NCBI RefSeq assembly: GCF_024436035.1
Contig: NZ_JANFNG010000023.1
Coordinates: 1 to 64,000 of the forward strand
Source: Streptomyces humicola
GTDB lineage: Bacteria > Actinomycetota > Actinomycetes > Streptomycetales > Streptomycetaceae
DNA: 64,000 nucleotides
Direction: 5' to 3'
Below, piece by piece: positions 17,907 through 34,328 of this stretch; the first letter of the stretch is position 1; every line of letters begins with the position of its first letter. Below the pieces are notes generated by a model. The model made no database searches. It was not told the DNA's origin and saw nothing but the letters and a program-made list of their open reading frames with translations. The position numbers were made by a program, and so were the translations under genes.

Positions 17907-18311
17907 TTATCCCGTGGTGCGGGGAGCCGTTCCCAGGTGCGCTCCGACGCGCTTGACGAGCAGCGCCATCTCGTAGGCGATCAGGCCGACATCGGATTCC
18001 GCGTCCGCGAGCACGGCAAGGCAGCTGCCGTCCCCCGCCGCGGTGACGAAGAGGAACGCCTCGTCGAGCTCGACCATCGTCTGGCGGACCTGGCCGGCGT
18101 CGAAGTGGCGGCCGACGCCCTTGGCCAGGCTGTGGAACCCCGACGCGACGGCCGCCAGGTGTTCGGAGTCCTCCCGCGTCAGATCCTTGGACGCGCCCGT
18201 CGCCAGGCCGTCGCCGGAGAGCACAAGTGCCTTGCGGACACTGCCCACCCGGGCGACCAGGTCGTCCAGCAGCCAGTTCAGCTCGCCCGCAGTGCTCGAT
18301 GGTGCGGTCAT
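17907..18311 (-). CDS. cvnB: Roadblock/LC7 protein, conservon component B
   Basis: A 134-aa roadblock/LC7-fold protein (LNWLLDDLVARVGSVRKALVLSGDGL is the family start). In conservons it regulates the small GTPase. ATG 18311 has GGAGGGGG upstream and overlaps the stop of the sensor gene by 4 bp (ATGA), showing translational coupling. The DUF742 gene follows 7 bp later. Confidence 0.93.
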   Translation of the reverse strand: MTAPSSTAGELNWLLDDLVARVGSVRKALVLSGDGLATGASKDLTREDSEHLAAVASGFHSLAKGVGRHFDAGQVRQTMVELDEAFLFVTAAGDGSCLAVLADAESDVGLIAYEMALLVKRVGAHLGTAPRTTG

Positions 18312-21016
18312 CGACCGTCCCCCTCCGATGTCGTTCCCTGTTGTTGCTCTATGGGGCCTTGCTCGATGGAGCATTGCTCACCGGGACCGCCGTCGGGGCG
18401 GTCCGCGGTCCTGGTGTCGTCCGTCTCGGCACGGCCGCGCTGCCAGCCGCGCTGCAACGAGCTCATGCGCGCGCGGACTTCGTCGGCGTCCCGGTCGTGG
18501 GCGGGTGCCGGCGCGGTCGCCGGTTCTCCGGGGCCTTGCGGGGCTCCGTCGCGGCCGGGGTCCTCGCAGCGCAACTGCGGGGCCAGACTGGCCTGGCGGA
18601 CCCGGCGGGGCAATCCCTCGGATGTCTGATCCGAGGGAGAGGCCGCGGCTGCGCCTTCGGTACGGTGCCGGCGCGTGGTGTCCACCGTGCGGCCGCCGTC
18701 GGCGACCAGCACCGGGGTGCCGCGACGCCGGCGCGGGAGGGGCGCGGGCCCGTCGTCCGGCGGCGACGGCTGTGCCGGCCCGGCGTCGGGTGAGGCCTCG
18801 TCCGGGGCCTGCTGGTGCTGCTCGGCGAACTCGAACGGGCGTGGACGCGGCACGGGTTCGGGGTACGGTCCCGGCCGAGGTTCCCGCTCCCCCGCGCCCT
18901 GCGGGAGGGCCGGAAGGATCCCCCAGGCGCGGAATGCGTCATCGGGGTCGTTCTCTGCGGCGCCGACGAGGTCGCCGGGCGCCATCCGCATCGCGTCCGC
19001 TCCGGGTTCGCCGTCGGGGGCGTCAGCGGCGTCGCTCCCGTCGCCGACGAGCCGCTCGGCGGTGAGCCGTGCCAGCACCCCGGTTGCCGGCTGCTCGCCG
19101 GTGTCCGGCGGCTCCTGCCCGCCGCCGTCGGTGAGCAGCGCTGCGGGGACGAGCACGACGGCGGTGGTGCCGCCGTACGGGGAGTGGCGCAGCGAGACGC
19201 GTACGTCCTGGCGCTGGGCGAGGCGGCTGACGACGAAGAGGCCGAGCCGGTCGGTGTCGGAGAGTTCGAACTCCGGGGTTTCGGCGAGGCGCAGATTGGC
19301 GTCGAGCAGCGCGTCGGGCGTCATGCCGAGCCCCCGGTCGTCGATCTCGAGGACGAAGCCGTTGGCGACCCGCTGGCCGTGGACGTGCACGGTGGTGTGC
19401 GGGGGCGAGAACACGGTGGCGTTCTCGATGAGTTCGGCGAGGAGGTGGGTGAGGTCGGCGACGGCAGCACCCGATACCGACAGCCGCGGCAGCCGCCTGA
19501 CCTCCACCCGTTCGTAGTCCTCGACCTCGGCGACGGCGGCGCGTACGACGTCCATCAGGGGAATGGGTTTGCGCCACTGGCGGGAGGGTGCCGCGCCGGA
19601 GAGGATGACGAGGCCTTCGGCGTGGCGGCGCATGCGGGTGGTCATGTGGTCGAGGCGGAACAGATCGGCGAGTTCCTCACCCGCCTCCGTACGGCGCTCC
19701 ATGGCGTCGAGCAGGGTGAGCTGCCGGTGGAGCAGCACCTGGCTGCGGCGCGCGAGGTTGACGAAGACGTCGGAGACGCCCTTGCGCATGTCGGCCTGGC
19801 GCACTGCGGCCTCGACGGCCGCCCGTTGCAGAGTGTTGAGCGCCCGCCCGACCTGCCCGATCTCGTCGTCCGGGTACTCCAGGCGCGGCACTTCGGTCTC
19901 GACGTCGACGACGTCGCCGGCGGCGAGCCGGCGAATGACGCTGGGCAGCCGGGAGCCGGAAGCCTCCTGCGCCTCCCTGCGCAACGCGGACAGGTCGCGC
20001 GCGAGTGAGCGCCCGATGCGCAGCGAGATGACGACGGATGCGAGAACGGCGAGAAGTCCGGCGCCGCCGGCGATTCCCGCCGCGAGCACGATGTGTACGG
20101 CGAACGGTTCGACGCGCTTGTTGTAGTGGTCGTAGGCCTGGCGGTCGAGGTCCGACAGGTCGCCGAGGACGGAGGAGGCCGTGGACTGCCAGATGGCGGG
20201 GGTGACGGCGGTCGGCGCCCGGTCGGCGTCGGCGGTAATGATCTGCTCCTCGGCGTTGTGCAGTGCCAGGCCGGTGCCGCTCTTCCAGTACGTGTCGAAG
20301 AGCGCCGCGTCGGATGCGGGGAGCAGGTCGGGGTAGGTGGCGTAGATGGTGCGCTGTTCGGCGACGGCGTCGGAGAACTCCCGCTGTTCGGGGCGGCTCA
20401 TCCGGCCGGAGACCAGTGCGGCGGCGTACAGCGCGTCCTCGCGGGAGATCAGCTCGCGGGCGCGGTCGAGCTCGGTGAGTACGCGCGCCTGGCGGTCGAG
20501 GTCGACGCTCTGCAGCGGGTCGAGGCCGAGGAAGAAGGTGTAGTAAGGGTCGATCGCGTCGTTGTACGCAGTGAACGCGTCGGCGCGGGTGATCTGGTTC
20601 TCGTCGACCTGGCGGCGCAGCGTGTCGAGGTCGCCCGCCTGTTTGACGAGGACGTCGAGGCGCTGCAGGGAGGTGGCGTCCAGCTTGCTGCGGATGCTCC
20701 GGTCGGCGCTGTGGTCGCGCATCACGGTGACGGCCTGGTCGGTGTTCTGCTCCGCGGTGCGAAGATCGGGTCCGGCGTCGGCGCGGCGCGGGTCGGCGAG
20801 GTAGACCAGGGCGGCGAGGCGTTCCTTGGAGAGCGCTTCTGCGGTGTCCTCGACGGGATAGGCGATCTTGTCGGTCACCTGCTGGACGTCGAAGAGTCCG
20901 AAGACTCCGCGGCTGGTCATCCATGCCGCGAATGCCCAGATGGCGACGAGGGAGAACAACGGCACCAGCAGCAGCGCCACGATCTTCCGACGGATCGTCG
21001 TACCGCGAAAGCGCAT
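18308..21016 (-). CDS. cvnA: Conservon component A: NIT-HAMP sensor histidine kinase-like protein
   Basis: A 902-aa membrane sensor. One membrane helix lies at about residues 12-32 and a second near 305-330; between them is a helical extracellular nitrate/nitrite-sensing (NIT) type domain. A HAMP-like linker, a coiled dimerisation segment (DMRKGVSDVFVNLARRSQ) and a GHKL ATPase follow (N-box LAELIENATVFSPP, then DDRGLGM). The last ~230 residues are Pro/Asp-rich and probably disordered. GGGGAGG lies just before ATG 21016. It heads an A-B-C operon; no response regulator is nearby, as usual for conservons. Confidence 0.92.
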   Translation of the reverse strand: MRFRGTTIRRKIVALLLVPLFSLVAIWAFAAWMTSRGVFGLFDVQQVTDKIAYPVEDTAEALSKERLAALVYLADPRRADAGPDLRTAEQNTDQAVTVMRDHSADRSIRSKLDATSLQRLDVLVKQAGDLDTLRRQVDENQITRADAFTAYNDAIDPYYTFFLGLDPLQSVDLDRQARVLTELDRARELISREDALYAAALVSGRMSRPEQREFSDAVAEQRTIYATYPDLLPASDAALFDTYWKSGTGLALHNAEEQIITADADRAPTAVTPAIWQSTASSVLGDLSDLDRQAYDHYNKRVEPFAVHIVLAAGIAGGAGLLAVLASVVISLRIGRSLARDLSALRREAQEASGSRLPSVIRRLAAGDVVDVETEVPRLEYPDDEIGQVGRALNTLQRAAVEAAVRQADMRKGVSDVFVNLARRSQVLLHRQLTLLDAMERRTEAGEELADLFRLDHMTTRMRRHAEGLVILSGAAPSRQWRKPIPLMDVVRAAVAEVEDYERVEVRRLPRLSVSGAAVADLTHLLAELIENATVFSPPHTTVHVHGQRVANGFVLEIDDRGLGMTPDALLDANLRLAETPEFELSDTDRLGLFVVSRLAQRQDVRVSLRHSPYGGTTAVVLVPAALLTDGGGQEPPDTGEQPATGVLARLTAERLVGDGSDAADAPDGEPGADAMRMAPGDLVGAAENDPDDAFRAWGILPALPQGAGEREPRPGPYPEPVPRPRPFEFAEQHQQAPDEASPDAGPAQPSPPDDGPAPLPRRRRGTPVLVADGGRTVDTTRRHRTEGAAAASPSDQTSEGLPRRVRQASLAPQLRCEDPGRDGAPQGPGEPATAPAPAHDRDADEVRARMSSLQRGWQRGRAETDDTRTADRPDGGPGEQCSIEQGPIEQQQGTTSEGDGR

Positions 21017-21272: not shown

Positions 21273-21695
21273 ATGGAGACCGGGTCGCGCAGATCGCGCC
21301 TGTTGTGGACTGAGGAGCCGGTCGGCCGGAGGCGCATGCCCGATCCCGTCCGCGCCTCGGCGGTCCGCGCGGGCCTGCTCGTGTCGACGACCATGATCGA
21401 GGCGATGGTCGCCGTCCTCGGCACTCTCGCACACACATGGATTGCGCCACCGGCGGCACTGTGCACGGTCGTCAGCACGGTGGTCACCACCTGGGCCGTG
21501 CTGGATGTGTGGATCACCCGGCAGGTGTGGAACCAGCGCAATGGCGTGGTCTCCGGCCCGAGCAGCGCGGCGCGTGCGCTGCGGCGGGAGCGGCGCCGTG
21601 CACGCAAGGCCCGACGTGCCGAGGCCCGACTTGCCCGGCGGGTTCGCCGGCCGCCCGATGTGCTGCCGGGGCCGGACGTGCTCTCCGGGACCTGA
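21273..21695 (+). CDS. Small conserved membrane protein
   Basis: A 140-aa protein with two predicted membrane helices (about residues 32-52 and 57-80) and a very basic C-terminal tail (many Arg, RRERRRARKARRAEAR). I recognise no enzymatic domain. ATG 21273 has GGAG 9 nt upstream. It diverges from the conservon sensor gene and converges on the large SMC-like gene, ending 23 bp from that gene's stop. A membrane anchor for a neighbouring complex is possible but not shown. Confidence 0.65.
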   Translation: METGSRRSRLLWTEEPVGRRRMPDPVRASAVRAGLLVSTTMIEAMVAVLGTLAHTWIAPPAALCTVVSTVVTTWAVLDVWITRQVWNQRNGVVSGPSSAARALRRERRRARKARRAEARLARRVRRPPDVLPGPDVLSGT

Positions 21696-21717: not shown

Positions 21718-24700
21718 TCATCCCGCCTGCTCGGCCGGGCGCCGGAACATCCTGGTGGCGGTGATCTCGCCATGCACCGGCTCGCTGTCCGGATCCTGTT
21801 GGGGCAGCCCCGGCCGCAGGTGCTCCTCGACGCTGATGTACTTCAGCCCTGCCCGCAGATCCGCGTCGTTGCGCAGCCGTACCACCAGCGGGAACTCCGC
21901 GAGCGCGGTGGTGTCGAACAGGCCCGTTGTGTAGATCAGCTGGACGCCGAGCGCGTCCGCGACGGCGCGCTGCAGCTCCAGCAGATAGGTCGCGTTGGCC
22001 CGGCCGATCGGGTTGTCGAGGAAGAGGGTGCCCGCGTGCTTCTGGCGGTCCCGGCCGCTGTCGTTGCTGCGCAGCGCCGCCATCGTGCAGTACAGCGCGA
22101 TTGCCGCGGTGAGCAGCTGCCCTCCGGAGAAGACGTCCCCCATCTGCCCGACCGGTACCCGCTCTGCGCGCAGTACGGCATCGGGCTTGAGGATTTCGAC
22201 GCTGACCCCGCGTGGCTCCAGGGCCGCCTGCACCCCGCGCAGCAGCAGCGTCATGCCGTCGCGGCGCAGGTCGGAGTTCTTTCGGACGGCCGCGCGCGTC
22301 GCCTCGTCGATGACCTCCCCCAGGCGTCCGCTCAGCACCGCGTGGTCCGGATCGTCGAAGCGGATGCGCAGGAACTCCTGGCCCGACCACTCGCCCAGGC
22401 CCTCCGGCAGCCGCGAGAGCCGCTGCGCCGAACGCAGCGTGGCGAGCGCCGCCTCGACCAGGCCGCGCAGCCGGTCGACGATGGAGTCCCGGTTGCGCTC
22501 CAACTGCTCCAGCTCGTCGGAGAGTACGCGAAGGCGTGGTGCGAACGCGGCGGCCCAGGCGGCGGCGTGCTCGGACAGGGACGCGGCGGGCAGTTCGCGG
22601 ATCTGCTGCCGGGCGGGGGTACGGACCTGCTCGAAGCAGGTGGCGTTGGCGTGGCGCACGAGCTGGTCGGCCGCCTCGCGCAGCTGCGACTCGGCCGACG
22701 ACAGGTCGGCCGCGCAGCCGCGCAGCGAACGCCGTGCCTCCGCGGCCGCGTGGCGCGCCTCCTCCAGGCTCCCTGGGTACGGATCGGGTTCGTCGTCCGC
22801 CGCGGCGTCGTGCGCTGTGTCACGCAGCAGGTCGCGCAGGAGCGCGGTGAGCTCGTCGAAGCCGCTCGCCGCGTCCTCGGCGGCCCGGTGGGCGCGCTGC
22901 AGTTCGGTGAGGCGGTCGCGTGCCGTCGCCAACGCGTCGGTGTGCTCGGCGAGTTCCGCGGTCACGGTGCGCAGAAGTGTCTGCGCCTGTCCGGCGCCGT
23001 CGGGGACAAGCTCCTCGGGCAGTTCGGTGTGGGTGTCGCCGTCGGCCGGGGCGAGGCGCTCCGCCTCGCCCCGCAGTCTGCCGAGCTGCTCACTGGCGGC
23101 CGCTGCCCGCGACTCGATGCGCTGTACGAGTGCCTCGGCGCGGGCGGCCGCCGCCTGACGTGAGGGGCCGTCGGCGCCGTCGGGGCCTTCGAGCAACTGG
23201 GCGGCGCGGGTACGGACCTTGTTGGTGAGGCGGTCCAACTCGGCAAGTGCGGCGCTCTCGTCGCTCTCCGCCCGCGCCTGCTCGGCTCGCAGGTCGGCGC
23301 CGACGCCCACCTTCTCGTACACCTGGGACGCGGCGCGGTAGGCCTCGCGCAGCGCGGGCAGAGAGGCGCCCGGGGCGGGGCCCGTGTCATCCACTGCGGC
23401 CGCCTCGGCATCGGCGCCGGCGATCTCGGCGCGCTCGGCGCGCAGCGCGCGCACGGTACGGCGCGCGTCGTCGGCTGCGCGCTGAGCGGCCCGGCGGTCC
23501 TCGTCCGCGGAGCGGGCCCTGGCGATCCAGGACTCGGCGCGTTCCTCGGCCTCGGCTGCCTCCTCGGCGAGCTCGCGCATGCGTCGCTGCCATGCGGCGC
23601 GTTCACGCAGCCGGAAGGCGAGCCCCGCGAGGGCGTCGGCGCGGCGGCGGGCTCGCTGCGCCGCCTCCTGGCGCTGGTCGCGCACGCGGGACGCCTCGTC
23701 CGCGGCCCGGTCCGCCTCCCCGCGCCGGGCCCGGGCCTCGGCCAGTTGCTGCTGGGCGCCGGCGGCCGCGGCCCGCGCCGATTCGACGGCGGCGGCGAGT
23801 TCCGCCAGACGCCCGGCCGGGCAGGAGGCGCGCCATGAGCCGAGGCGGGCCGCCAGCTCCCGGTCGTGGCCGAGGCGTGCGGCGAGGGCCCTGATCTCCT
23901 CCTCGCGGGCGGTGGCGCGGGCCCGCAACGACTGGCGCTCACCGTCGGCGGCCTGCTCGTCGTGCATGGCCGGGTTCGGCGGTACGAGGAAGACGTCGTC
24001 GGCGGCGGCCGTTGCCGTGGGCGGCGCCAGCAGTGCGGCAGCGGTGCCGACGGCGACGGTGGAACGCGGCAGCAGCGCCGCCTCGGCGAGGACGTCGCGG
24101 GCGCGCTGGTAGGTGCCGGGATCGGTGACCACGACGCCGTCGACGAGTTCGGGGCGGGCGGCGAGCACGGCCGCGTGGTCGGCGGGGTCGACGGCCTGCG
24201 CGAGATAACGCCAGCCGGGGAGTGCGGGCACGCCGTGCTCGCCGAGGTATTCGACGGTCGCCAGCACGTCGGGGCCGGGCGGCAGCAACCCACCGTCACC
24301 GAGCGCGGCGAGGATCCGCGCGTCCTCCGCGGCCGAGGTCCGCAGCTCGAACAGCTGGCGTTCGGCGCGTGCGACGCAGTCGCCGAGCAGCTCGGTCAGG
24401 GTCTCGGCATTGCGGTCCAACTCGGCGACGGTGAGCTGTCCTTCGGGTGCGGAGCCCGCGCGCGGCGCCGGGACCGATGCCGCTGTGCCGTCGGCTGCGG
24501 CCGGCGGCAGGCCGATGAGTTCGGCGAGACGGTCGTCGGCCGCCAGGGCCTCGGCTGCCCGGCGCTCCGCCGCGTACCCGGTCTCCGCGGCCTGAAGGGC
24601 GTCCGTGGCACGGGCCGCAGCGAGAGCGGCGCGGCCCTCGGCGTCCGCGGCGTCGCGGGAGCGTTCCGCGGCCGCCGCGGCGGCGTCCCGCGCGCTCTCC

Positions 24701-26346
24701 CATTCCGCGACCGCCGCCTTCTCCGCGTCGCTCGCGTCGAGCGCCGCCCGCGCCGGGTCGGCGTCGGGGGCCGCGTCGTCGAGCCATCCGGCGCCAACCG
24801 CCTCCGCCGTCTCCTGTTCGACCTCGGCAAGCCGCTGCTGCAGATGGCCGGCCTCGCTGCGGGCGCGCTGCGCCGCCGTGGCGGCCGATGTCGCGTCGCG
24901 GTGCGCGCTGTCGGACTCGCCTTGCAGGGCGACCGACCGCTCCTCTTCGGCGTCCGCCTGGCGTTCGGCGCTCTCGGCCGCCGCGTGCAGGGCCCGTACG
25001 AGGTCGGCGGCGGCCTTGGCCCGCGCGGCGAGGGCAGGTGCGGCGTCGCGTTCCGCCTCGCGGATGGCGGCGGCGACCCTGGCGGAGCGGTCGGCGGCGG
25101 CGCGGTGGCGCAGTACGGTCTCGGCCGCCTGCCATGCGGCGTGCAGCGTCCGCGCCTCGGCGAGCTCCCGGCGCAGGCCGGCCGTGTCCTTCTCTGCGGC
25201 GGCGAGGCTCAACGACGCGTGGCGGTAGGCGAGTTCGGCGCTGATACGCGCGGTGCGGCCGCGTGCCGCATCGGCGTCGGTGACCGACTGCGCGGCGTCG
25301 CTGACGCGCCGGTCGAGCTCGGCGGCGCGGGCGCGTTCGGTGGCGGCGCGGGCGGAGAGCCGTCGGGCCAGTTCGCGGGTGCGGCGCTCGCTCTGCGCGT
25401 GCACGGCGCGTGCGCTGTCGCGGCGCTCGGTGTGGTCGGCGATCCCTTCCAGGTGTTCCAGGGAGCCCGCGGTGAAGTCGCGCTCGGCGGTCAGCTCCGC
25501 GCGGCGTCCCAGCTTGTGGGCGAAGCCGTGGACGAGGTCGGCGAGGCCGTCGGTGTCACGCGTGTCGGTGACCGCGCGCAGCAGCAGGTCGGTGAAGTCG
25601 GAGTCCTTCTTGACCGAGAACAGGCCGGCCGCCTCGCCCTCGTCGGCGTTCATCTCGCGCTGGTAGCGGAAGAGTTCGGGATCGAGGCCGAGGTCGCCGA
25701 GGTGCTCGTTCCAGCGGTCGTGGATCTCCTCCCACACCACGTCCAGGTGGGGGTAGGCCTTTCCGGCTTCGATGAGGGCGTCGCGGAAGCCCTTCATGGT
25801 GCGGCGGCGCCCCCGCGCTGCCGAGATGCCTTCCGCGGCGGGCCGTACGGACGCGGACTCGGCGACGGGCAGCGAGTCAAGGCAGAGACCCGGGCCGGGG
25901 CGGAAGGAGTACCAGGCCTCGGCGAACTTCCGTGGGTCGGAGGAGACCTGACGGCCGCGCCATTCACTCACCTTGCCGACGACGACGAGTTCGCCGGTGA
26001 CGGTGTGCTGCCACTCCAGTGCCACATGCCCGCAGTCCTCGGCGAGCAGGAACTTGCGCAGCACGCCGGAGCTCGCGCCGCCCAAGGTGTTGCGGTGGCC
26101 CGGCAGCATCACCGAAAAGATCAGCTTGAGCAGCACGGACTTGCCGCCGCCGTTCTCCAGGAAGAGCACTCCGGCCGGTGCGGGGCGGCGCGGCGGGCCC
26201 ACCGGCTCGTCCTCAAAGAACTCGCCCTGCGCGGGGGCGGGCTGCGGGACCGGGTCGCCGACGCCTCGCAGGTCCAGGACGGTGTCGGCATAGCGCGCGC
26301 CGGCCGGTCCGATGGAGTAGAGGCGGACCCGGGACAGCTCGTACAT
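21718..26346 (-). CDS. SMC/MukB/JetC-like coiled-coil ATPase (1542 aa)
   Basis: A very large ATPase with split ABC halves joined by coiled coils. The N-terminal Walker A is ENGGGKSVL (residues ~64-72). Long Ala/Glu/Arg-rich coiled coils run from about 280 to 1300, broken near 600-760 by a non-coiled, hinge-like region. The C-terminal half has ABC signature FSGGQLLTAA and Walker B GTLFLDNPIG. The residue after the Walker B Asp is Asn where SMC proteins have the catalytic Glu. Layout and partners fit MukB/MksB/JetC. It is third in an operon with the genes at 26435-27406 and 27403-28935. ATG 26346 has only a weak GAGAG upstream. Confidence 0.85.
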   Translation of the reverse strand: MYELSRVRLYSIGPAGARYADTVLDLRGVGDPVPQPAPAQGEFFEDEPVGPPRRPAPAGVLFLENGGGKSVLLKLIFSVMLPGHRNTLGGASSGVLRKFLLAEDCGHVALEWQHTVTGELVVVGKVSEWRGRQVSSDPRKFAEAWYSFRPGPGLCLDSLPVAESASVRPAAEGISAARGRRRTMKGFRDALIEAGKAYPHLDVVWEEIHDRWNEHLGDLGLDPELFRYQREMNADEGEAAGLFSVKKDSDFTDLLLRAVTDTRDTDGLADLVHGFAHKLGRRAELTAERDFTAGSLEHLEGIADHTERRDSARAVHAQSERRTRELARRLSARAATERARAAELDRRVSDAAQSVTDADAARGRTARISAELAYRHASLSLAAAEKDTAGLRRELAEARTLHAAWQAAETVLRHRAAADRSARVAAAIREAERDAAPALAARAKAAADLVRALHAAAESAERQADAEEERSVALQGESDSAHRDATSAATAAQRARSEAGHLQQRLAEVEQETAEAVGAGWLDDAAPDADPARAALDASDAEKAAVAEWESARDAAAAAAERSRDAADAEGRAALAAARATDALQAAETGYAAERRAAEALAADDRLAELIGLPPAAADGTAASVPAPRAGSAPEGQLTVAELDRNAETLTELLGDCVARAERQLFELRTSAAEDARILAALGDGGLLPPGPDVLATVEYLGEHGVPALPGWRYLAQAVDPADHAAVLAARPELVDGVVVTDPGTYQRARDVLAEAALLPRSTVAVGTAAALLAPPTATAAADDVFLVPPNPAMHDEQAADGERQSLRARATAREEEIRALAARLGHDRELAARLGSWRASCPAGRLAELAAAVESARAAAAGAQQQLAEARARRGEADRAADEASRVRDQRQEAAQRARRRADALAGLAFRLRERAAWQRRMRELAEEAAEAEERAESWIARARSADEDRRAAQRAADDARRTVRALRAERAEIAGADAEAAAVDDTGPAPGASLPALREAYRAASQVYEKVGVGADLRAEQARAESDESAALAELDRLTNKVRTRAAQLLEGPDGADGPSRQAAAARAEALVQRIESRAAAASEQLGRLRGEAERLAPADGDTHTELPEELVPDGAGQAQTLLRTVTAELAEHTDALATARDRLTELQRAHRAAEDAASGFDELTALLRDLLRDTAHDAAADDEPDPYPGSLEEARHAAAEARRSLRGCAADLSSAESQLREAADQLVRHANATCFEQVRTPARQQIRELPAASLSEHAAAWAAAFAPRLRVLSDELEQLERNRDSIVDRLRGLVEAALATLRSAQRLSRLPEGLGEWSGQEFLRIRFDDPDHAVLSGRLGEVIDEATRAAVRKNSDLRRDGMTLLLRGVQAALEPRGVSVEILKPDAVLRAERVPVGQMGDVFSGGQLLTAAIALYCTMAALRSNDSGRDRQKHAGTLFLDNPIGRANATYLLELQRAVADALGVQLIYTTGLFDTTALAEFPLVVRLRNDADLRAGLKYISVEEHLRPGLPQQDPDSEPVHGEITATRMFRRPAEQAG

Positions 26347-26360
26347 GGCGGACGACTCTC

Positions 26361-26420
26361 GTTTGTCTTCTTGTGTGTGGTGTTGTCTGTTATGTCTTGT
26401 CTGTTGTGTCTTGTCTGTGG
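26361..26420 (-). repeat. AC-rich leader with 14-bp tandem repeats before the SMC-like gene
   Basis: On the minus strand the 88-bp gap between the second and third SMC-operon genes is almost free of G-C clusters. It contains ACAGACAAGACACA, ACAGACAAGACATA and ACAGACAACACCAC head to tail. This base composition is unlike the surrounding DNA. It would give an unstructured mRNA leader in front of a gene with a weak Shine-Dalgarno. Confidence 0.75.
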
Positions 26421-26434
26421 TGTCGGCGTGGTGT

Positions 26435-27406
26435 TCAGGAGTGGAACGGCAGCCCGGCGTCGGCGACCAGGTCCAGCTCCTCGGTTCCGTCCGGCGCCAC
26501 CAGCGACGGAGTGCCGTCGGCGACCGGGACGACGCCGAGGGCGAGGAGTTCGGCCATGGCCGCGCTGCCGGCCATGTCACGCACTTGGAGCTGGTAGCGG
26601 GCGGTCGTGCGGTAGGTGCCGCCGGACTCGTCGCCGGTGCGCTGCAGGAACCCCGAGTCGACGAGGAACGCGACGGCCTTGCCCACGATGCCGGTGGTCG
26701 AACCGGCGAGGCGGCGGGCGTCCTTGGTGGCTCCTGTCGCGCTGCGTCGTGCGTAGACCCGCCAGGCCGCTTCCAGGCCGGGCGCCTCGCTCGCCGGGTC
26801 GGTGTTCTCGCCCTGCTCCTCGGCCCGCTCCTCCAGGCGGCGGCACGCTTGGCGGACGAAGGCGTCGACACCGTTGACGGTGATACGGCCGATGTAGCCG
26901 TCGTCGGCGAGATCGGCGGGGCGCGGGAACGCCATGGCGGCGACGGCGAGATGGGCCAGACCGTGCAGGAAGCGGTCGGTGGAGTCGGAGGCGGCACGGC
27001 GCGAGTAGTCGCCCATGCGGACGGCGAACACCGAGTCCTCGGCGGCGGCGAGCGCCATGCCGGCGCGCGCGGAGACCTCCAGTATCACCAGGCCGAGCCC
27101 GGCGGCGACGGCGTCGGCGAGCCGTGCGAAGGCGGGGTCGTCGCGGTGGCGTCGGATCAGCTCGGCGTACTCGGCATCACGCGCGGGCAGCAGCTTCGGC
27201 TGAAGTCCGCAGGCGACCAGACGCGAGGCGTCGGCGACATCGGCCGGCGTCATGCGGTCCGGGGCGCCGGCGCCCTGCTGCGCCTCGGCGCCGTGCTCGT
27301 GTTCGTCGCTCATCTGCGGCCTGTCTGCTCGCTTCTCCGCCCGCGAGGCGAGAGGTGCGGGCATCATCGCCGTCTGCGGCCCGGAGGCCTCGCGCGCGTC
27401 GCTCAC
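26435..27406 (-). CDS. Second subunit of SMC-like complex (JetB/MksE-like)
   Basis: A 323-aa protein without signal peptide or membrane helices. After a disordered first 50 residues come helices and a winged-helix-like C-terminal part ending in GGTYRTTARYQLQVRDMA, a strand-rich stretch like the wing of KITE proteins (MukE/MksE/JetB). The assignment rests on position and general architecture, not on a clear sequence signature. GTG 27406 overlaps the stop of the upstream gene by 4 bp (GTGA), so the two are translationally coupled. The SMC-like ATPase gene follows after 88 bp. Confidence 0.65.
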   Translation of the reverse strand: MSDAREASGPQTAMMPAPLASRAEKRADRPQMSDEHEHGAEAQQGAGAPDRMTPADVADASRLVACGLQPKLLPARDAEYAELIRRHRDDPAFARLADAVAAGLGLVILEVSARAGMALAAAEDSVFAVRMGDYSRRAASDSTDRFLHGLAHLAVAAMAFPRPADLADDGYIGRITVNGVDAFVRQACRRLEERAEEQGENTDPASEAPGLEAAWRVYARRSATGATKDARRLAGSTTGIVGKAVAFLVDSGFLQRTGDESGGTYRTTARYQLQVRDMAGSAAMAELLALGVVPVADGTPSLVAPDGTEELDLVADAGLPFHS

Positions 27407-28935
27407 GTGATCTCCTCTGCCGTCCGTCCGGCGGCCATCTCCGCCGCGTCGAGCAGTGCCGAGCCGACGATCAGGTCGGCGCCGCCGAACTCCGGGTCGT
27501 CCAGCTCGGTGCCGTCGTCGACAGCGAACAGCAGCCGCTGCTCGCCCTGCCGGTACGCCGTGCCGACCGGCGGGCTGGCCGCGTGGACCGCCAGCAGGGC
27601 GACCAGATAGGGCAGTTCAGGGTCGCGGCGCCGGGCCTCGGCGAGGAGCCCGGACAGCCGGCGGGGCGCGTCGTGCGGGAGATCGAGCAGTTCGAGGGCG
27701 GCGTCGAGCTGCTCCTCGGTGAACCTGCTGTCCTCGGGCGTCGCGACGAGATCCGGCTCGGGCATCCGCGCGCCGAGGTGCTCACGTTCCACCGGCGGCG
27801 TGAGCAGCGCCTCGACGAGATCGCCCACCCGCACCGCGGGCGGGGTGCGCAGCCCGGCGCCGCGCGCGAAGAAGGCGTCGGTGACCCGGGCCGCCTGCTC
27901 CACAGGGAGCAGCAGCACGGGGGCGAGCAGTTGCCCGTACAGGTCGAGGCCGGCCCGCGCGGGCGGCGCGGCGAACGCCTGCCGGTCCTGTTCGGCGCGG
28001 AAGAGCGGCCCGGCCTCCAGCAGCCGGGACTGCAGCTGCGTGTGGCGGCGGATGCAGTCCTTGACGATGTCGACGAGTTCCGCGGCGCGCCGCTTGTGCT
28101 CGGGCTCCTCCGACTCGTCGCGCGCCTTGCGGATGTTGGTGAGGATCGCGTTCTCGTGGCGGTAGCGGTCGGCGACGTGGTCGAGCGCCTCGTTGATCAG
28201 GTCGGGCACGGCGCGCAGCCAGTCGACCGCGCGGACGTCGCGCCGGGTCGCCTCCAGGGCGCGGCGGAGCGACTCGGCGTACTGGACGGTGCGGTACCTG
28301 GCCTGTTCCGCGGCGAGTTGGGCGTCGGCGAGACGGCCGCGGTTGATCAGCACTTCCAGCTTGACCTCGGCGGCGATCTGGGCGCTGGTGACGTCGGTGT
28401 CGAGGGCGCCGACGAGCACGTTGACGGCCTCGTCGGTGGCGCGCAGATAGACCGTGCCGCCGGGCCCCGGCACCTCCTCGATCAGCTTGAAGTCGTAGTC
28501 ACGGCGGACGTAGACGCCGTCGGTGCCGAACGTTCCGTACACCGCGCGGAATCCGCGGTCGACGCTGCCGACGTTGATCAGGTTCTCCAGCGCCCAGCGG
28601 GCCACCCGCTCGTGCTCCTCCGCGCTGCGCTGGGGGGTCTGGGCGGCGACGCGCGGCAGCAGGCGGGCGATTATCTGATCGTGGTCGGCGCCGGTGTCGA
28701 AGTCCATGTTCAGCGTGACCAGGTCGATGGCGGCGAGCGCCACCTCGGCCATCGCGTACGTGGAGTACTCCCCGGCGAGATTGGCCTTGCGTACGTCCAG
28801 GTCGTGCAGCGGCGCGGTGCAGGCCAGCGCCTTGAGCCGACGGGCCAGGCCCTCGTCGGCTGCGGGCCCGGGCGCGACGGGGCGCGCCGGGCCGGCGGTG
28901 TGCTGCGCAGGGGTCCGCGCGGTGGACGTACTCAC
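27403..28935 (-). CDS. First subunit of SMC-like complex (kleisin/JetA-like)
   Basis: A 510-aa soluble protein. The N-terminal half (KALACTAPLHDLDVRKANLAGEYSTYAMAE start omitted from motif calling) is helical and carries RRDYDFKLIEEV. A coiled-coil segment lies around residues 215-335 and an acidic C-terminal half follows. This layout and its place at the head of the operon fit a JetA/MukF-like kleisin, but I see no diagnostic motif. GTG 28935 is chosen because a TAATGT -10 box lies 7 nt upstream, as in leaderless transcripts; ATG 28965 is possible but has no Shine-Dalgarno. No JetD/MksG nuclease gene is adjacent. Confidence 0.65.
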   Translation of the reverse strand: MSTSTARTPAQHTAGPARPVAPGPAADEGLARRLKALACTAPLHDLDVRKANLAGEYSTYAMAEVALAAIDLVTLNMDFDTGADHDQIIARLLPRVAAQTPQRSAEEHERVARWALENLINVGSVDRGFRAVYGTFGTDGVYVRRDYDFKLIEEVPGPGGTVYLRATDEAVNVLVGALDTDVTSAQIAAEVKLEVLINRGRLADAQLAAEQARYRTVQYAESLRRALEATRRDVRAVDWLRAVPDLINEALDHVADRYRHENAILTNIRKARDESEEPEHKRRAAELVDIVKDCIRRHTQLQSRLLEAGPLFRAEQDRQAFAAPPARAGLDLYGQLLAPVLLLPVEQAARVTDAFFARGAGLRTPPAVRVGDLVEALLTPPVEREHLGARMPEPDLVATPEDSRFTEEQLDAALELLDLPHDAPRRLSGLLAEARRRDPELPYLVALLAVHAASPPVGTAYRQGEQRLLFAVDDGTELDDPEFGGADLIVGSALLDAAEMAAGRTAEEIT

Positions 28936-28942
28936 GACGGAC

Positions 28943-28948
28943 ACATTA
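28943..28948 (-). promoter_or_regulatory. Candidate -10 box for leaderless start of SMC-like operon
   Basis: TAATGT on the minus strand lies exactly 7 nt before GTG 28935, the spacing of actinobacterial leaderless transcripts. It lies downstream of the oxoprolinase stop at 28984 and would separate the SMC-like operon from the oxoproline operon. The -35 is not clear. Confidence 0.4.
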
Positions 28949-28983
28949 GGCGGTCCCACCGACATTGATCTAAATCGGCTCGG

Positions 28984-31900
28984 TCAGGACGGGCTGCTCC
29001 CGTACCCGCCGCCGCCCGGCGTCCGCACGACGAGCACATCCCCGGCGCCGACCTCGGCCGCGTCGCACCCGCCCAGCTCGTCGACGGCGCCGTCCGCCCG
29101 CTCGACGAGGTTGGCGCCGAGCGCTCCCGGCCCGCCGCCCGCCATGCCGTAGGGCGCCACCCTGCGGTGGCCGGACAGCAGCGCCACCGTCATCGGTTCG
29201 AGGAATCGGATACGCCGCTCGACGCCGCATCCGCCGTGCCAGCGGCCGCTGCCGCCGCTGCCGTTGCGGATCCGGAACTCCTCGACGCGCACGGGGTAGC
29301 GCCATTCGAGGATCTCGGGGTCGGTAAGGCGCGAATTGGTCATATGGGTCTGCACCGCATCGGCGCCGTCGAAGCCGTCGCCCGCGCCCGAGCCGGAGGC
29401 GACGGTCTCGTAGTACTGGACGCGGTCGTTGCCGAAGGTGACGTTGTTCATGGTGCCCGATCCCTCGGCCTGGGCACGCAGCACGGCGTAGAGGGCGCCG
29501 GTGACGGCCTGGGAGGTCTCCACGTTCCCTGCGACCGTGGCGGCCGGGTAGCTCGGTGCGAGCATGCAGCCCTCGGGCACGCGGACGTCGAGCGGCTTCA
29601 GGCAGCCGCTGTTGAGCGGGATGTCGTCGGCGACGAGGGTGCGGAAGACGTAGAGCACGGCCGCCATGACCACCGAGCGGGGGGCGTTGGTGTTCCCCGG
29701 CTGCTGCGGCGAGGTGCCGGTGAAGTCGAGGACGGCGCTGCGCGAGGCGCGGTCCACGCGCAGCGCGACCTGGATGACGGCGCCGCCGTCGGTCTCGTAG
29801 CGGTACTCGCCGTCGTCGAGGTCGGCGATGATCCGGCGCACCGATTCCTCGGCGTTGTCCTGCACGTGCCGCATGTAGGCGTGCACGACGTCGAGGCCGA
29901 ACTGGTCGACCATGCGGTGCAGTTCGTGGATGCCCTTCTCGTTGGCGGCGATCTGGGCGCGCAGGTCGGCGAGGTTGGCCTCCGGGTCGCGCGAGGGGTA
30001 CAGCGCGCCGGTGAGCAGCGCGCGCGTCTCCGCCTCGCGCAGCCTGCCGTCGCGTACCAGCAGCCAGTTGTCGAACAGCACGCCTTCCTCGTCGATGGTG
30101 CGGCTGAACGCGGGCATCGAGCCAGGGGTGAGGCCGCCGATCTCGGCGTGGTGGCCGCGTGAGGCGACGAGGAACAGCAGCTCCCGCCCGTCGGCGTCGA
30201 AGACGGGGGTGACCACGGTGACGTCCGGCAGGTGAGTGCCGCCGTGGTAGGGGTCGTTGATGGCGTAGACGTCGCCCGGCCGCATACCCGCCCGTCTCCC
30301 GCCACCCCCCTCGTCCGAGGCGCTGCGCGCCGCTGTCACTCCGGCATTGCGCCGCAGCACCTCCTTGATGGACTCGCCCATCGAGCCGAGGTGGACCGGG
30401 ATGTGCGGGGCGTTGGCGATCAGATTGCCCTCGGGGTCGAACAGGGCGCAGGAGAAGTCGAGCCGCTCCTTGATGTTGACTGAGTGCGCGGTGTTCTCCA
30501 GGCGGACGCCCATCTGCTCGGCGATCGCCATGAACAGGTTGTTGAACACCTCCAGCATCACCGGGTCGACGCTGGTGCCGACCGCCGTCGTGCGCGGGCG
30601 TGGCCGGGAGCGGGTGAGGACGAGGTCGCCGTGCGGATCGCCGGCGGCGCGCCAGCCGGGGTCGACGACGGTGGTGGCATCGGCCTCGGCGATGATCGCC
30701 GGGCCCTCGACGACGTCACCGGGCCGGATGTCGTCCCGCCGGTACAACTCGGTCTCCTGCCAGCGCCCTTCGGTGAAAATCCGCACCGTGGCCGCCGGGC
30801 GAAGGGTCCCCTCGGGCTGCTCGTGCACGGCAGGGGGCTGTGCGGGCGGCCCCGAGGAACCGGTGGCCTCGACGGAGACCGCCTCGACGACGAGTGGCTT
30901 GTCCATGACGAAGCCGTAGCGGCCGCGGTGGTCGCGCTCGAATGCGGCCTGCATCCGCTCGGGGGTGTCGAGTGCGACGGGGAGGGAGGAGTCGGTGCCC
31001 TCGTAGCGCAGCAGCACCCGGCCGGTGGTGCGGACGGTGTCCGCCGGCACGCCGTCGTCGTGCAGCTGCGCTCGCGCGAGCCGCTCCAGTTCGGCGCACG
31101 CCTCCTCGACCTTGCTCATCGTCCCGGCGGCGAGCCGGGACTCCACGGACCGTTCGCGCAGCGCCACCGCGTCCGCCATGCCGATGCCGTACGCCGACAG
31201 CACCCCGGCGAGCGGCGGTACGAGGACGGTGTCGATGCCGAGCGCGTCGGCGACCGCGCAGGCGTGCTGGCCGCCCGCGCCGCCGAAGCTGGTCAGCGCA
31301 TAGCGGGTGACGTCGCGGCCGCGCTGGACGGAGATCTTCTTCACCGCGTTGGCGATGTTGAGCACGGCGATGTCGAGGTAGCCCGCGGCGACCTCCTCCG
31401 GGGTGCGGCGGTCGCCGGTCGCCTCGGCCGACTGTTCGGCGAGCTCTTCGAAGCGGCGGCGTACGACAGCGTCGTCGAGCGGCTGGTCGCCGTCCTTGCC
31501 GAACACCCGTGGGAAGTGGGCGGGTTGGATGCGGCCCAGCATGACGTTGGCGTCGGTGACGGTGAGCGGGCCGCCGCGCCGGTAACAGGCGGGTCCGGGA
31601 TCGGCGCCTGCCGAGTCGGGGCCGACGCGGTAGCGCATCCCGTCGAAGTGGAGCACCGAGCCCCCGCCCGCCGCCACGGTGTGGATGTCGGTCATGGGTG
31701 CGCGCATCCGCACCCCCGCGACCTGGGTGCCCAGCACCCGTTCGATCTCGCCCGCGTAGTGCGAGACGTCGGTGGACGTGCCACCCATGTCGAAGCCGAT
31801 TGCACGGTCGTAGCCCGCCCTGGCGGCGGCGCGCGCCATGCCGACCACACCGCCGGCGGGGCCGGAGAGCACCGCGTCCTTGCCGCGGAAGTGACCGGCC

Positions 31901-32637
31901 TCCCGCAGCCCGCCGCCGGACTGCATGAACATCAGCCGCACGTCGCGCAGTTCGCCGGCCACCTGGTCGACGTAGCGGCGCAGGATCGGGGAGAGATAGG
32001 CGTCGACGACGGTGGTGTCGCCGCGTGGCACGAGTTTGATCAGTGGGCTCACCTCGTGCGAGCAGCTCACCTGAGTGAAGCCGAGCCGTCGTGCCGCCTC
32101 GGCGACGGCGCCCTCGTGCTCGGGATGGCGGTATCCGTGCAGGAAGACCACGGCCGCGCTGCGGATGCCGTCGCGGTGGGCGTCGCGCAGCGCCTCGGTG
32201 GCCGCGCCCAGGTCCAGGGGGCGCACCGTCTCCCCGTGCGCGCCGACGCGTTCGGGTACCTCGATGACGCGCTCGTACAGCGCCCCGGGCAGCACGATGT
32301 GCCGGTCGAAGAGGCGGGGCCGGTTCTGGTAGGCAATGCGCAGCGCGTCGCGGAAACCTTCGGTGACGACGAGGACGGTGGGTTCGCCGGTGCGTTCCAG
32401 CAGGGCGTTGGTGGCTACCGTCGTCCCCATCTTGACCACGTCGATCCGATGGGACGGGATCGGCTCATCCGGCTCCAGGCCGAGGACGAGCCGGATTCCG
32501 GCGACGGCCGCGTCGCGGTAGGCCTCCGGGCGCTGGGAGAGCAGCTTGCGGCTGACCACGTGTGCGTCCGGGGTCACCGCCACGACGTCGGTGAAGGTGC
32601 CGCCACGGTCGATCCAGAACTGCCAGCGCCCGGTCAT
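28984..32637 (-). CDS. ATP-dependent 5-oxoprolinase, single chain (HyuA-HyuB fusion)
   Basis: A 1217-aa enzyme with the hydantoinase/oxoprolinase A half (N-terminal [25 protein letters not shown]; residues ~1-665) fused to the B half (from about 690, [16 protein letters not shown], through [13 protein letters not shown]). It is the length of eukaryotic-type OPLAH, which hydrolyses 5-oxo-L-proline to glutamate with ATP; hydantoinase activity cannot be excluded. ATG 32637 is favoured because MTGRWQFW begins the fold. It lies 39 bp after pcp in the DUF969-DUF979-pcp operon, which supports oxoproline as substrate. Confidence 0.88.
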
Positions 32638-32676
32638 GTGCTCATTGTGCGCCCGGAGCATCCCGCCGCGCCCGGG

Positions 32677-33321
32677 TCAGTGCGTGGCACCGCCGGCCAC
32701 CACGATGTCCTCGGTACGGGAGGCGGCAGCGGTCACGACGGCGCGCAGCCCTTCGGCGGCGAGGGTGACCGGCAGCGACGGCTGTGCCCGGTCGGTGACC
32801 TGCTCGGGCGCGTACGGCAGATGAACAAAGCCGCCGCGCATGTGCGGTCGCTGCGTGGCCATCAGATGCATGAGGCCGTAGAAGACGTGGTTGCAGACGA
32901 AGGTGCCCGCGGTCTGCGATACGGAGGCGGGCACCCCTGCGGCGCGGGCCGCGGCCACGCACGCCTTGACCGGCAAGGTGGAGAAGTACGCGGCCGGCCC
33001 GCCCTCGACGACGGGTCTGTCGACCGGCTGCCGTCCGGCGTTGTCGGGGATGCGCGCGTCGTCGACGTTGATGGCGATGCGCTCCACGGTCACGTCCGGG
33101 CGCCCTCCGGCCTGGCCGGTGCAGATCACCACGTCCGGCTCGGTGCGTGCGACCGCCGCCGTCAGCTCGTCGAGGGCGACGGAGAAGACACAGCTGAGCC
33201 GTGATGAGACCACCTCGACACCCGGCGGATGGACGGCGACGACGTCGGCGACTGCCCGCTCCGACGGGTTGACGCTGTCGCCGCCGAACGGTTCGAAGGC
33301 GGTGAGCAGGACACGAGTCAT
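32677..33321 (-). CDS. pcp: Pyroglutamyl peptidase (pyrrolidone-carboxylate peptidase)
   Basis: A 214-aa cysteine peptidase of family C15 that removes N-terminal pyroglutamate from peptides, giving free 5-oxoproline. The N-terminal LLTAFEPFGGDSVNPS and the catalytic-cysteine motif TAGTFVCNHVFY are clear. ATG 33321 is preferred: GAGGGG lies 7 nt upstream, whereas the ATG at 33327 abuts it. It sits in the operon DUF969-DUF979-pcp-oxoprolinase, directly supplying the substrate of the next enzyme. Confidence 0.95.
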   Translation of the reverse strand: MTRVLLTAFEPFGGDSVNPSERAVADVVAVHPPGVEVVSSRLSCVFSVALDELTAAVARTEPDVVICTGQAGGRPDVTVERIAINVDDARIPDNAGRQPVDRPVVEGGPAAYFSTLPVKACVAAARAAGVPASVSQTAGTFVCNHVFYGLMHLMATQRPHMRGGFVHLPYAPEQVTDRAQPSLPVTLAAEGLRAVVTAAASRTEDIVVAGGATH

Positions 33322-33331
33322 CTCCATCCCC

Positions 33332-33376
33332 CTCAGAAAGCGAAGACTCAGAATACGAAGACTCAGAAAGCGAAGA
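33332..33376 (-). repeat. Three 15-bp tandem repeats carrying in-frame stops
   Basis: Plus-strand units CTCAGAAAGCGAAGA, CTCAGAATACGAAGA and CTCAGAAAGCGAAGA occupy 33332, 33347 and 33362. On the coding minus strand each gives Phe-(Ala/Val)-Phe-stop in the DUF979 frame, so the end of that gene has been triplicated in the gap before pcp. Confidence 0.85.
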
Positions 33377-34328
33377 GCGCCATGATGAGCATCGTGCACA
33401 CCAGCAGCGCGCCCGCGGTGGGCAGTTGGGCCTTGATCGGCCCGTATTGGTCCTTCAGTTCGAGCAGCGTGGCGGGCACGATGTTGAAATTGGCGGCCAT
33501 CGGGGTGCACAGCGTCCCGCAGAAACCTGCGAGCATGCCGGTGGCGAGGACGGCCGCGGGGTTGCCGTGCGCCTGCTGGATCAGCACAGGCCAGCCGACC
33601 GCTGCCGTCATCACCGGGAAGGCCGCGAAGGCGTTGCCCATGATCATGGTGAACAGCGCCATTCCGAGGCAGTACACGACCACGGCGGTGTACGTCTGCC
33701 CGTGCGGCAGCAGTTGCGAGGTGATCCCGCCCACCGCCCTGCCGACCCCGGCCTGCTGGAATATGGCGCCGAGCGTGGCGAGCAGCTGCGGAAGCAGCAG
33801 CGCCCACCCCATCGCCTCGAGCATCCCGCGGCCGGCGTGCAGGGGCTCGGCCGGCCGCCGCTCGCGCAGCAGGACCATGGCGACGACGAGGGCGATCACG
33901 GCGCCCGCGCCGAGGCCGAGGATCGTCTCGCTGCCCGGTTCGAGCACGGGCGTTCTCCCGATGCGCCAGCCCTTCACGACAACGGCGCAGAGCATCGCCA
34001 CGACCGGAATGGTCAGCGCCGGTAGGAAGATGCGGTTGCCGAGCCGGGCGGCGGATGCGGCGCGCTGGGCGTGGTCGGTGCGCACCGCGCCGCGTCCGGT
34101 GAAGCCGAACCCGGCAAGGACAGCCATCAGCAGGACGGCGGCGCCGAGCGGTTCCGCGGGTGCGGTCTTGTCGACCACGAAGGTGCTGTAGACGAAGCCG
34201 GCGCCGATGAGGCCCCAGAAGGCCGCCGTGCCGCGGCGCTTGGGGTTGGTCCGGTCACGCAGCATCTGCACGGCCATGGTGAGGAAGACGGCGCCGATCA
34301 GCCAATAGAACCATTCCGCCTTGATCAT
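33363..34328 (-). CDS. DUF979 membrane protein (putative oxoproline/peptide permease subunit)
   Basis: A 321-aa polytopic membrane protein with about 9-10 hydrophobic helices. FTMIMGNAFAAFPVMTAAVGWP and GFCGTLCTPMAANFNIVP are conserved DUF979 stretches. DUF979 always travels with DUF969, and often with pcp; the two together are predicted to form a transporter. ATG 34328 overlaps the DUF969 stop (ATGA). The last codons, Phe-Ala-Phe-stop, lie in a 15-bp tandem repeat. Context with two oxoprolinases suggests import of 5-oxoproline or pyroglutamyl peptides; transport has not been shown for this protein. Confidence 0.88.
   Translation of the reverse strand: MIKAEWFYWLIGAVFLTMAVQMLRDRTNPKRRGTAAFWGLIGAGFVYSTFVVDKTAPAEPLGAAVLLMAVLAGFGFTGRGAVRTDHAQRAASAARLGNRIFLPALTIPVVAMLCAVVVKGWRIGRTPVLEPGSETILGLGAGAVIALVVAMVLLRERRPAEPLHAGRGMLEAMGWALLLPQLLATLGAIFQQAGVGRAVGGITSQLLPHGQTYTAVVVYCLGMALFTMIMGNAFAAFPVMTAAVGWPVLIQQAHGNPAAVLATGMLAGFCGTLCTPMAANFNIVPATLLELKDQYGPIKAQLPTAGALLVCTMLIMALFAF

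What the first reader, a model, noticed from the sequence alone, without database searches (positions are those of the whole stretch)
21718..28935. Three-gene SMC-like complex without a nuclease subunit
A 1542-aa split-ABC coiled-coil ATPase and two coupled partner proteins match the plan of MukBEF/MksBEF/Wadjet JetABC. The JetD/MksG toprim nuclease that defines plasmid-defence versions is absent, and the partner sequences show no known signature. This may be an undescribed actinobacterial loop-extruding or DNA-handling complex, for chromosome upkeep, plasmid exclusion or another use.
Basis: partly seen in the sequence, partly recalled or inferred. Interest (0 to 1): 0.85.

Follow-up and report, generated by a model that had tools for sequence, protein, structure and literature searches.

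The report
Nuclease-less Wadjet complex in streptomycetes
Nearly every sampled streptomycete carries, next to its normal chromosome-organising machine, a second DNA-looping machine that looks like a plasmid-killing defence system that lost its DNA-cutting part long ago and was kept, probably for housekeeping.

Summary
The three-gene SMC-like operon is real. It is not signature-less: PADLOC type III Wadjet models match JetC (1399 bits) and JetA (630 bits). JetD, the nuclease that makes Wadjet a plasmid-restriction system, is missing beside it and was not found in the whole genome.
This is not a one-genome accident. The family is Streptomycetaceae. An orthologous JetA is in 72 of 73 family genomes sampled. 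JetD follows jetC in none of 34 family loci and 71 named loci whose far side is visible (the sets overlap). Distances indicate vertical descent: JetA against ScpA Mantel r = 0.89; JetA changes no faster than the ScpA domain of the same genomes. ATPase motifs are invariant, dN/dS is low, and all 36 checked carriers keep ScpA. The nearest JetD-bearing relatives are scattered copies, one on a Rhodococcus plasmid.
Best reading: a type III Wadjet that lost its nuclease and became a fixed second, MukBEF-like loop-extruding complex. JetD loss has been proposed in print for Pseudomonas MksBEF; my searches found no paper on this lineage. No function was tested.

The parts
27403..28965 (-). jetA: MukF-like kleisin subunit, 520 aa from the ATG; more likely start is the GTG at 28935 (510 aa)
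   Evidence: PADLOC JetA3 PDLC00567 630 bits; low-confidence model whose best PDB matches are chains of MukBEF/MukEF entries
26435..27406 (-). jetB: probable KITE subunit, 323 aa (possible true start ATG 27253)
   Evidence: no family match; its Rhodococcus homologue reaches PADLOC JetB3 only marginally, E 4e-4; lies between jetA and jetC in the intact loci read
21718..26346 (-). jetC: SMC-like ATPase, 1542 aa, split ABC head with long coiled coil
   Evidence: PADLOC JetC3 PDLC00588 1399 bits for the ORF that contains it; ATPase motifs invariant in the 35 family members aligned
26347..26434 (-). jetB-jetC spacer, 88 nt, A/C-rich, ending in a GAGAGTC-type stretch shared by many relatives (probable ribosome-binding site)
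   Evidence: spacer median 66 nt in 110 loci
21273..21695 (+). convergent small ORF (140 aa, reads as a membrane protein) directly after jetC, where JetD would lie; not part of the complex
   Evidence: relatives at this place in 11 of 35 family loci

Best explanation
The locus encodes a JetABC complex derived from type III Wadjet whose nuclease gene jetD was lost in an ancestor of Streptomycetaceae, and which was then fixed as a housekeeping SMC complex alongside Smc-ScpAB. Mechanism (inferred from Wadjet and MukBEF): JetC dimers bridged by the JetA kleisin and carrying JetB use ATP to load on DNA and extrude loops. Without JetD, completing or stalling a loop no longer leads to cutting, so the complex compacts, organises or helps segregate the chromosome, as reported for Pseudomonas MksBEF. 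Shown here: the three genes, their type III identity (JetA, JetC), absence of known kinds of JetD, intact ATPase motifs, constraint, vertical inheritance, coexistence with ScpA. Inferred: complex formation, loop extrusion, chromosomal role.
For: JetA3 and JetC3 model matches. No JetD in the own genome. Core JetA in 36 of 37 and 40 of 40 family genomes (4 shared, so 72 of 73; the 40 of 40 rests on the row order, and 39 of these 40 are of one genus code). Of the 72 carriers, 4 have a type III JetD, each away from the core locus. JetD was found beside jetC in none of 34 family loci and 71 named loci with at least 1200 nt visible after jetC, while the same scan found it in Wadjet-type loci. Family copies form one clade (SH-aLRT 99). 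Distance correlation with ScpA 0.893 (JetA, 26 genomes) and 0.901 (JetC, 25), 0 of 999 permutations; mean distance JetA 0.197, ScpA 0.269. dN/dS 0.04-0.20 (JetA), 0.12-0.32 (JetB), 0.11-0.34 (JetC) in 8 pairs that I chose. ATPase motifs invariant. ScpA in 36 of 36 carriers. Flanks in the window are metabolic and signalling genes, and neighbours read in relatives look alike. In nine single-contig family genomes JetA lies 10-20% from a contig end in 7; G012 is at 7.6% and G433 near 37% (positions; some sizes rounded).
Against: No functional data. Constraint shows that the complex matters, not what for. JetB correlates less with ScpA (r 0.607). Profile alignment to single E. coli MukF/MukE/MukB sequences is negative. 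The JetA model has mean pLDDT 50 and the JetB model 47, and the MukF matches have TM-scores near 0.2, so the fold evidence is weak. A nuclease of another family acting in trans would not have been seen. Frames are broken in one family genome, G012: not indispensable there, or a sequencing error. The JetD-less state also exists in a second family only patchily.
Confidence: 0.6

Rival explanations
1. It is still a defence system: JetABC recognises small circular DNA by total loop extrusion and either silences or sequesters it without cutting, or hands it to an unlinked host nuclease.
For: Its relatives with JetD are Wadjet, and plasmid restriction by Wadjet is established in print (PMC10586767, passages).
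Against: Defence systems are typically patchy and mobile (recalled). This one is near-universal in the family, vertical, slow-evolving and not among defence genes in the window. Four carriers hold a type III JetD at another locus in addition to the core copy, so the core copy does not replace it.
Confidence: 0.2
2. It is specialised for replication, repair or end maintenance of large, often linear, actinomycete chromosomes (for example tethering arms or positioning replisomes) rather than general compaction.
For: JetA lies 10-20% from an end in 7 of nine single-contig family genomes. Streptomyces chromosomes are linear (PMC8410768, abstract). A paper whose title I saw only in a reference list calls mycobacterial MksB a condensin that positions the replication machinery.
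Against: A related JetD-less lineage occurs patchily in a second family (f20; 19 of 35 genomes have a JetA match) whose chromosome shape I could not establish. Position alone says little about function.
Confidence: 0.13
3. It is a decaying remnant of a Wadjet system with no present function.
For: The effector gene is missing; frames are broken in G012.
Against: ORFs intact in the other family loci that could be read through, invariant catalytic motifs and dN/dS well under 1.
Confidence: 0.02

Closest known systems
Wadjet type III (JetABCD), e.g. plasmid unnamed3 of Rhodococcus pseudokoreensis R79 (NZ_CP070616)
   Same: Gene order jetA-jetB-jetC; JetA 55% identical, JetC 47.5% over the 41% of it that aligned; same FLDNP Walker B; PADLOC JetA3/JetC3
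   Different: The Rhodococcus locus has jetD directly after jetC; here it is missing locally and genome-wide, and the gene set is family-wide
MksBEF of Pseudomonas aeruginosa
   Same: Three-subunit SMC complex; [quoted passage not shown]
   Different: Here the ancestor is a type III Wadjet, in Actinomycetota, next to ScpA and nearly universal in a family; function not shown. I compared no MksBEF sequence
MukBEF of E. coli
   Same: Order kleisin-KITE-SMC (mukF-mukE-mukB); weak fold match of the JetA model to MukBEF/MukEF chains
   Different: No sequence similarity by hhalign to the single E. coli proteins; MukBEF replaces Smc-ScpAB (review), whereas here ScpA is kept
MksBEFG / EptABCD (type I Wadjet of Corynebacterium and Mycobacterium)
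   Same: Actinobacterial SMC-like plasmid-defence complexes (PMC10123090 and PMC10586767, passages)
   Different: They have the MksG/JetD nuclease; C. glutamicum's is type I

Membership tests
Wadjet type III (JetABCD) | JetC3-type SMC ATPase | tested here: met
   PDLC00588, 1399 bits
Wadjet type III (JetABCD) | JetA3-type kleisin | tested here: met
   PDLC00567, 630 bits
Wadjet type III (JetABCD) | JetB3-type KITE subunit | tested here: inconclusive
   No PADLOC match for the window protein; 49% identical to the Rhodococcus JetB, which itself matches JetB3 only at E 4e-4
Wadjet type III (JetABCD) | JetD Toprim nuclease in the operon or genome | tested here: not met
   Absent locally and not found genome-wide
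Wadjet type III (JetABCD) | Restricts circular plasmids | not testable with these tools
   Needs a deletion strain or reconstitution
MksBEF / MukBEF | Kleisin-KITE-SMC operon without nuclease | tested here: met
   the KITE label of JetB rests on position and distant homology
MksBEF / MukBEF | Sequence homology to MukF, MukE, MukB | tested here: not met
   hhalign against single E. coli sequences: probability at most 0.5% for JetA and JetB, 14% for JetC over 51 columns. MksBEF sequences were not tested
MksBEF / MukBEF | MukF-like fold of the kleisin | tested here: inconclusive
   The eight best PDB matches of the JetA model are chains of MukBEF/MukEF entries and the ninth is JetABCD, all at E above 1e-3, TM about 0.2, model pLDDT 50
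MksBEF / MukBEF | Organises the chromosome | not testable with these tools
   Needs Hi-C or imaging
Smc-ScpAB | ScpA-type kleisin partner | tested here: not met
   No Pfam family matched in the three proteins; the genome's one ScpA match lies on another contig, C45
Rad50 | CxxC zinc hook | tested here: not met
   No CxxC in JetC

The most novel reading that the evidence does not exclude
Streptomycetes have a second, overlooked housekeeping condensin, captured from a type III Wadjet defence system by loss of its nuclease and inherited since the family's ancestor. It shares chromosome folding with Smc-ScpAB and could be why smc deletions in Streptomyces are so mild. Defence-to-housekeeping conversion of SMC systems would then have happened more than once (MksBEF, this lineage, and perhaps separately in family f20).
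Probability: 0.45. Interest if true: 0.78.

Novelty: new variant of a known kind. Interest (0 to 1): 0.62.

Why it matters
It offers a clean natural experiment: a Wadjet core without its nuclease, whose kleisin is at least as conserved as the ScpA domain of the same genomes, kept through a large, genetically tractable bacterial family. Deleting it in a laboratory Streptomyces, alone and with smc, would test directly whether defence SMC complexes can become chromosome organisers, a point that a review of the field raises as speculation (PMC10586767, passages). It could also explain the mild phenotype of smc mutants reported in S. venezuelae (PMC8410768, passages). For annotation, a Wadjet caller that needed only JetA and JetC would label nearly every streptomycete as a plasmid-defence carrier.

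Tried and rejected
Pfam and NCBIfam gave nothing useful for the three proteins (coiled-coil noise and a 16-bit match).

The first distance test against ScpA was wrong: I read one strand only and got r near 0 with absurd distances. It was redone on both strands, and only that is used. One search returned ScpA loci for 27 of the 36 carriers (cap on loci); G033 (jetA cut by a contig end) was then dropped, leaving 26, and JetC also lacks G021 (contig end), leaving 25. The ScpA stretch compared is the Pfam domain (about 221 residues).

Residues that differ between JetD-bearing (4-6 sequences) and JetD-less lineages: conserved in the former and absent from both JetD-less families, 2 positions in JetA, none in JetB or JetC; conserved in both JetD-less families and nearly absent from the former, 10 of 203 in JetA, 3 of 91 in JetB, 46 of 375 in JetC. 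With so few JetD-bearing sequences I do not claim loss of a JetD docking site.

AlphaFold models of JetA and JetB came out poor (mean pLDDT 50 and 47). The JetB fold search gave no convincing match (best E 1.0), with MukEF entries at ranks 25 and 31. Sequence searches of solved structures were empty or chance. The viral-contig scan gave one match, a contig that begins inside a jetA 86% identical and shows no jetB or jetC in the 10.5 kb held; not pursued.

Rad50-type protein: rejected (no CxxC; partner genes conserved). Remnant: rejected. Unlinked JetD of a known kind: not found in this genome.

Full report
WHAT IS THERE. On the minus strand lie jetA (to 27403, start at 28965 or, more likely, GTG 28935), jetB (27406-26435, 4-nt overlap with jetA) and jetC (26346-21718). 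Three jetA orthologues (L004, L083, L092) have a stop at residue 4 of the longer form; in two others flagged with one stop, none lies in the part that aligns. The true jetC start is the ATG at 26346, after an 88-nt spacer whose last part resembles that of many relatives. JetC has Walker A, SGGQ signature and Walker B motifs at its two ends and no CxxC. Upstream are a 5-oxoprolinase and a pyroglutamyl peptidase; downstream are a small convergent ORF and a NIT/HATPase sensor kinase.

WHAT IT IS RELATED TO. Pfam and NCBIfam give no useful match. PADLOC gives JetC3 PDLC00588 at 1399 bits and JetA3 PDLC00567 at 630 bits, both models of type III Wadjet; JetB has no match. Among plasmids the nearest full system is on a Rhodococcus pseudokoreensis plasmid: JetA 55%, JetC 47.5% over 41% of its length, and there jetD follows jetC directly. 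That JetD, two other plasmid JetDs (Streptomyces, Polaromonas) and one from genome G010 match JetD3 PDLC00594.

JETD IS MISSING. The own genome has no match to Pfam JetD_C, PDLC00594 or a JetD alignment. Controls: G010 and G051 were found in both of the last two (G010 is itself a row of the alignment, so only G051 is an independent control there). Of the 36 carriers in the relatives set none has a type III JetD. Weak partial matches at E 1e-5 to 4e-4 occur in G030 and in G005 and G024. Pfam JetD_C occurs in G030 (the same place), G036 and, as a 43-position fragment, G025; I did not read their neighbourhoods. In the class sample 4 of 40 carriers have a type III JetD (G160, G230, G291; partial in G380), none at the core locus. 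An HMM scan of the 217 loci then held found JetD in Wadjet-type loci and next to jetC in none of the family loci. The far side of jetC, with at least 1200 nt, is visible in 34 of 35 family loci and 71 of 80 named loci. Some named loci are from the same genomes as the unnamed ones.

HOW WIDESPREAD. Family f1 is therefore taken to be Streptomycetaceae. Core JetA occurs in 36 of 37 f1 genomes (17 genus codes) of one sample and 40 of 40 of the other (39 of genus code g9); four are shared, so 72 of 73. That no f1 genome without a match exists is read from its row order, since 314 rows are not shown. The exception, G010, has a divergent JetABC followed by JetD and no ScpA hit. In the class sample JetA is found in 60 of 394 genomes: 40 f1, 19 f20, 1 f48. 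In f20 it is patchy, 19 of 35 genomes. Of 15 f20 copies whose downstream side could be read, 12 lack JetD and 3 have it (L203, L211, L214); 8 more were cut by contig or stretch ends. The one f48 copy (L198) also lacks it.

HOW IT EVOLVED. On a JetA+JetB tree of 57 copies (27 of the family's loci were put in), Streptomycetaceae form one clade (SH-aLRT 99) and the f20 core another (100). L198, labelled with f20 in the script, falls with the JetD-bearing L203 and L211. At least 3 changes of JetD status are needed (a quick tree with long branches; the order of Streptomycetaceae, f20 core and the L203 group is unsupported, 42). Loss is the simpler direction because the outer copies have JetD, but the root was not inferred. 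JetA and JetC distances follow those of ScpA (r 0.893, 0.901); JetB follows less well (0.607); 0 of 999 permutations reach any of them. Mean distances: ScpA domain 0.269, JetA 0.197, JetB 0.265, JetC 0.317. dN/dS is 0.04-0.34 over 8 chosen pairs and three genes. Walker A is invariant and signature and Walker B keep their catalytic letters in the 35 family JetCs aligned; G012 and G021 were left out. Frames are broken in G012; JetC or JetA runs off an end in L044 and L068.

HOW IT PROBABLY WORKS. Stated for relatives: JetABC is a dimer-of-dimers SMC core that recognises circular DNA, and JetD cuts (PMC10586767, passages). With the motor intact and the cutter gone, loop extrusion without cleavage is the direct inference. 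Vertical fixation, coexistence with ScpA (36 of 36) and metabolic or signalling neighbours (names of neighbours in relatives recalled) favour a chromosomal role. The mild phenotype of smc and smc hupS mutants in S. venezuelae (PMC8410768, passages) would fit a partly redundant second complex. I did not check that this strain carries jetABC.

STRUCTURE. AlphaFold models are poor. The JetA model nevertheless brings up chains of MukBEF/MukEF entries as its eight best PDB matches and JetABCD as ninth (none under E 0.001, TM about 0.2). The JetB model gives nothing usable. hhalign with E. coli Muk proteins is negative.

LITERATURE. Searches: Wadjet+Streptomyces, JetD+JetABC, MksG+lack+MksBEF, Streptomyces+MksB, Streptomyces+SMC-like+chromosome+MukB+condensin, phrases for JetD loss, Wadjet type III, Streptomyces+JetC, Streptomyces+MukBEF+core genome+SMC. 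None of the listings or passages I saw describes this lineage. A DefenseFinder survey reports Wadjet in 42% of Actinobacteria and enriched toward Streptomyces chromosome ends (PMC10482375, passages); its main text does not name JetD or JetABC. The library holds open-licence papers only, so absence there is not proof.

VERDICT. A nuclease-less type III Wadjet core, near-universal in sampled Streptomycetaceae, most likely acting as a second MukBEF-like complex. The pattern is solid; the function is inference.

Noticed in passing
window 28984-33807: A fused 5-oxoprolinase (hydantoinase A/B, 1225 aa) next to a pyroglutamyl peptidase: a probable pyroglutamate-recycling pair. LamB/YcsF-like and PxpB-like genes (names recalled, not searched) lie near jetABC in relatives.
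   Followed up: partly
window 18308-21016: NIT-HAMP-HATPase sensor kinase of a conservon-like operon (name recalled) follows jetC; the kinase cluster is near jetABC in 16 of 35 family loci.
   Followed up: partly
window 21273-21695: Small membrane-protein-like ORF convergent to jetC, with relatives in 11 of 35 family loci; function unknown.
   Followed up: no
window 26347-26434: The jetB-jetC spacer here is 45% A, 35% C, 3% T with ACAGACAAGACA-like repeats, unlike the mostly GC-rich spacers of relatives.
   Followed up: no
L057: In genome G036 about 5.2 kb with other genes lies between jetB and jetC.
   Followed up: no
L071 (genome G010): The only sampled family genome without the core JetABC also gave no ScpA match, yet has a divergent JetABC followed by JetD; incompleteness (93%) may explain part of it.
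   Followed up: partly
L061 (genome G012): jetB and jetC frames are broken in this genome, either pseudogenes or sequencing errors.
   Followed up: no
L203, L207, L213 (genome G372): One f20 genome holds a JetD-bearing copy, a copy with no JetD in the stretch read, and a third divergent copy cut by a contig or stretch end.
   Followed up: partly
L287 (IMG/VR contig): A contig classed as viral begins inside a jetA 86% identical to the window's, with no jetB or jetC in the 10.5 kb held.
   Followed up: no
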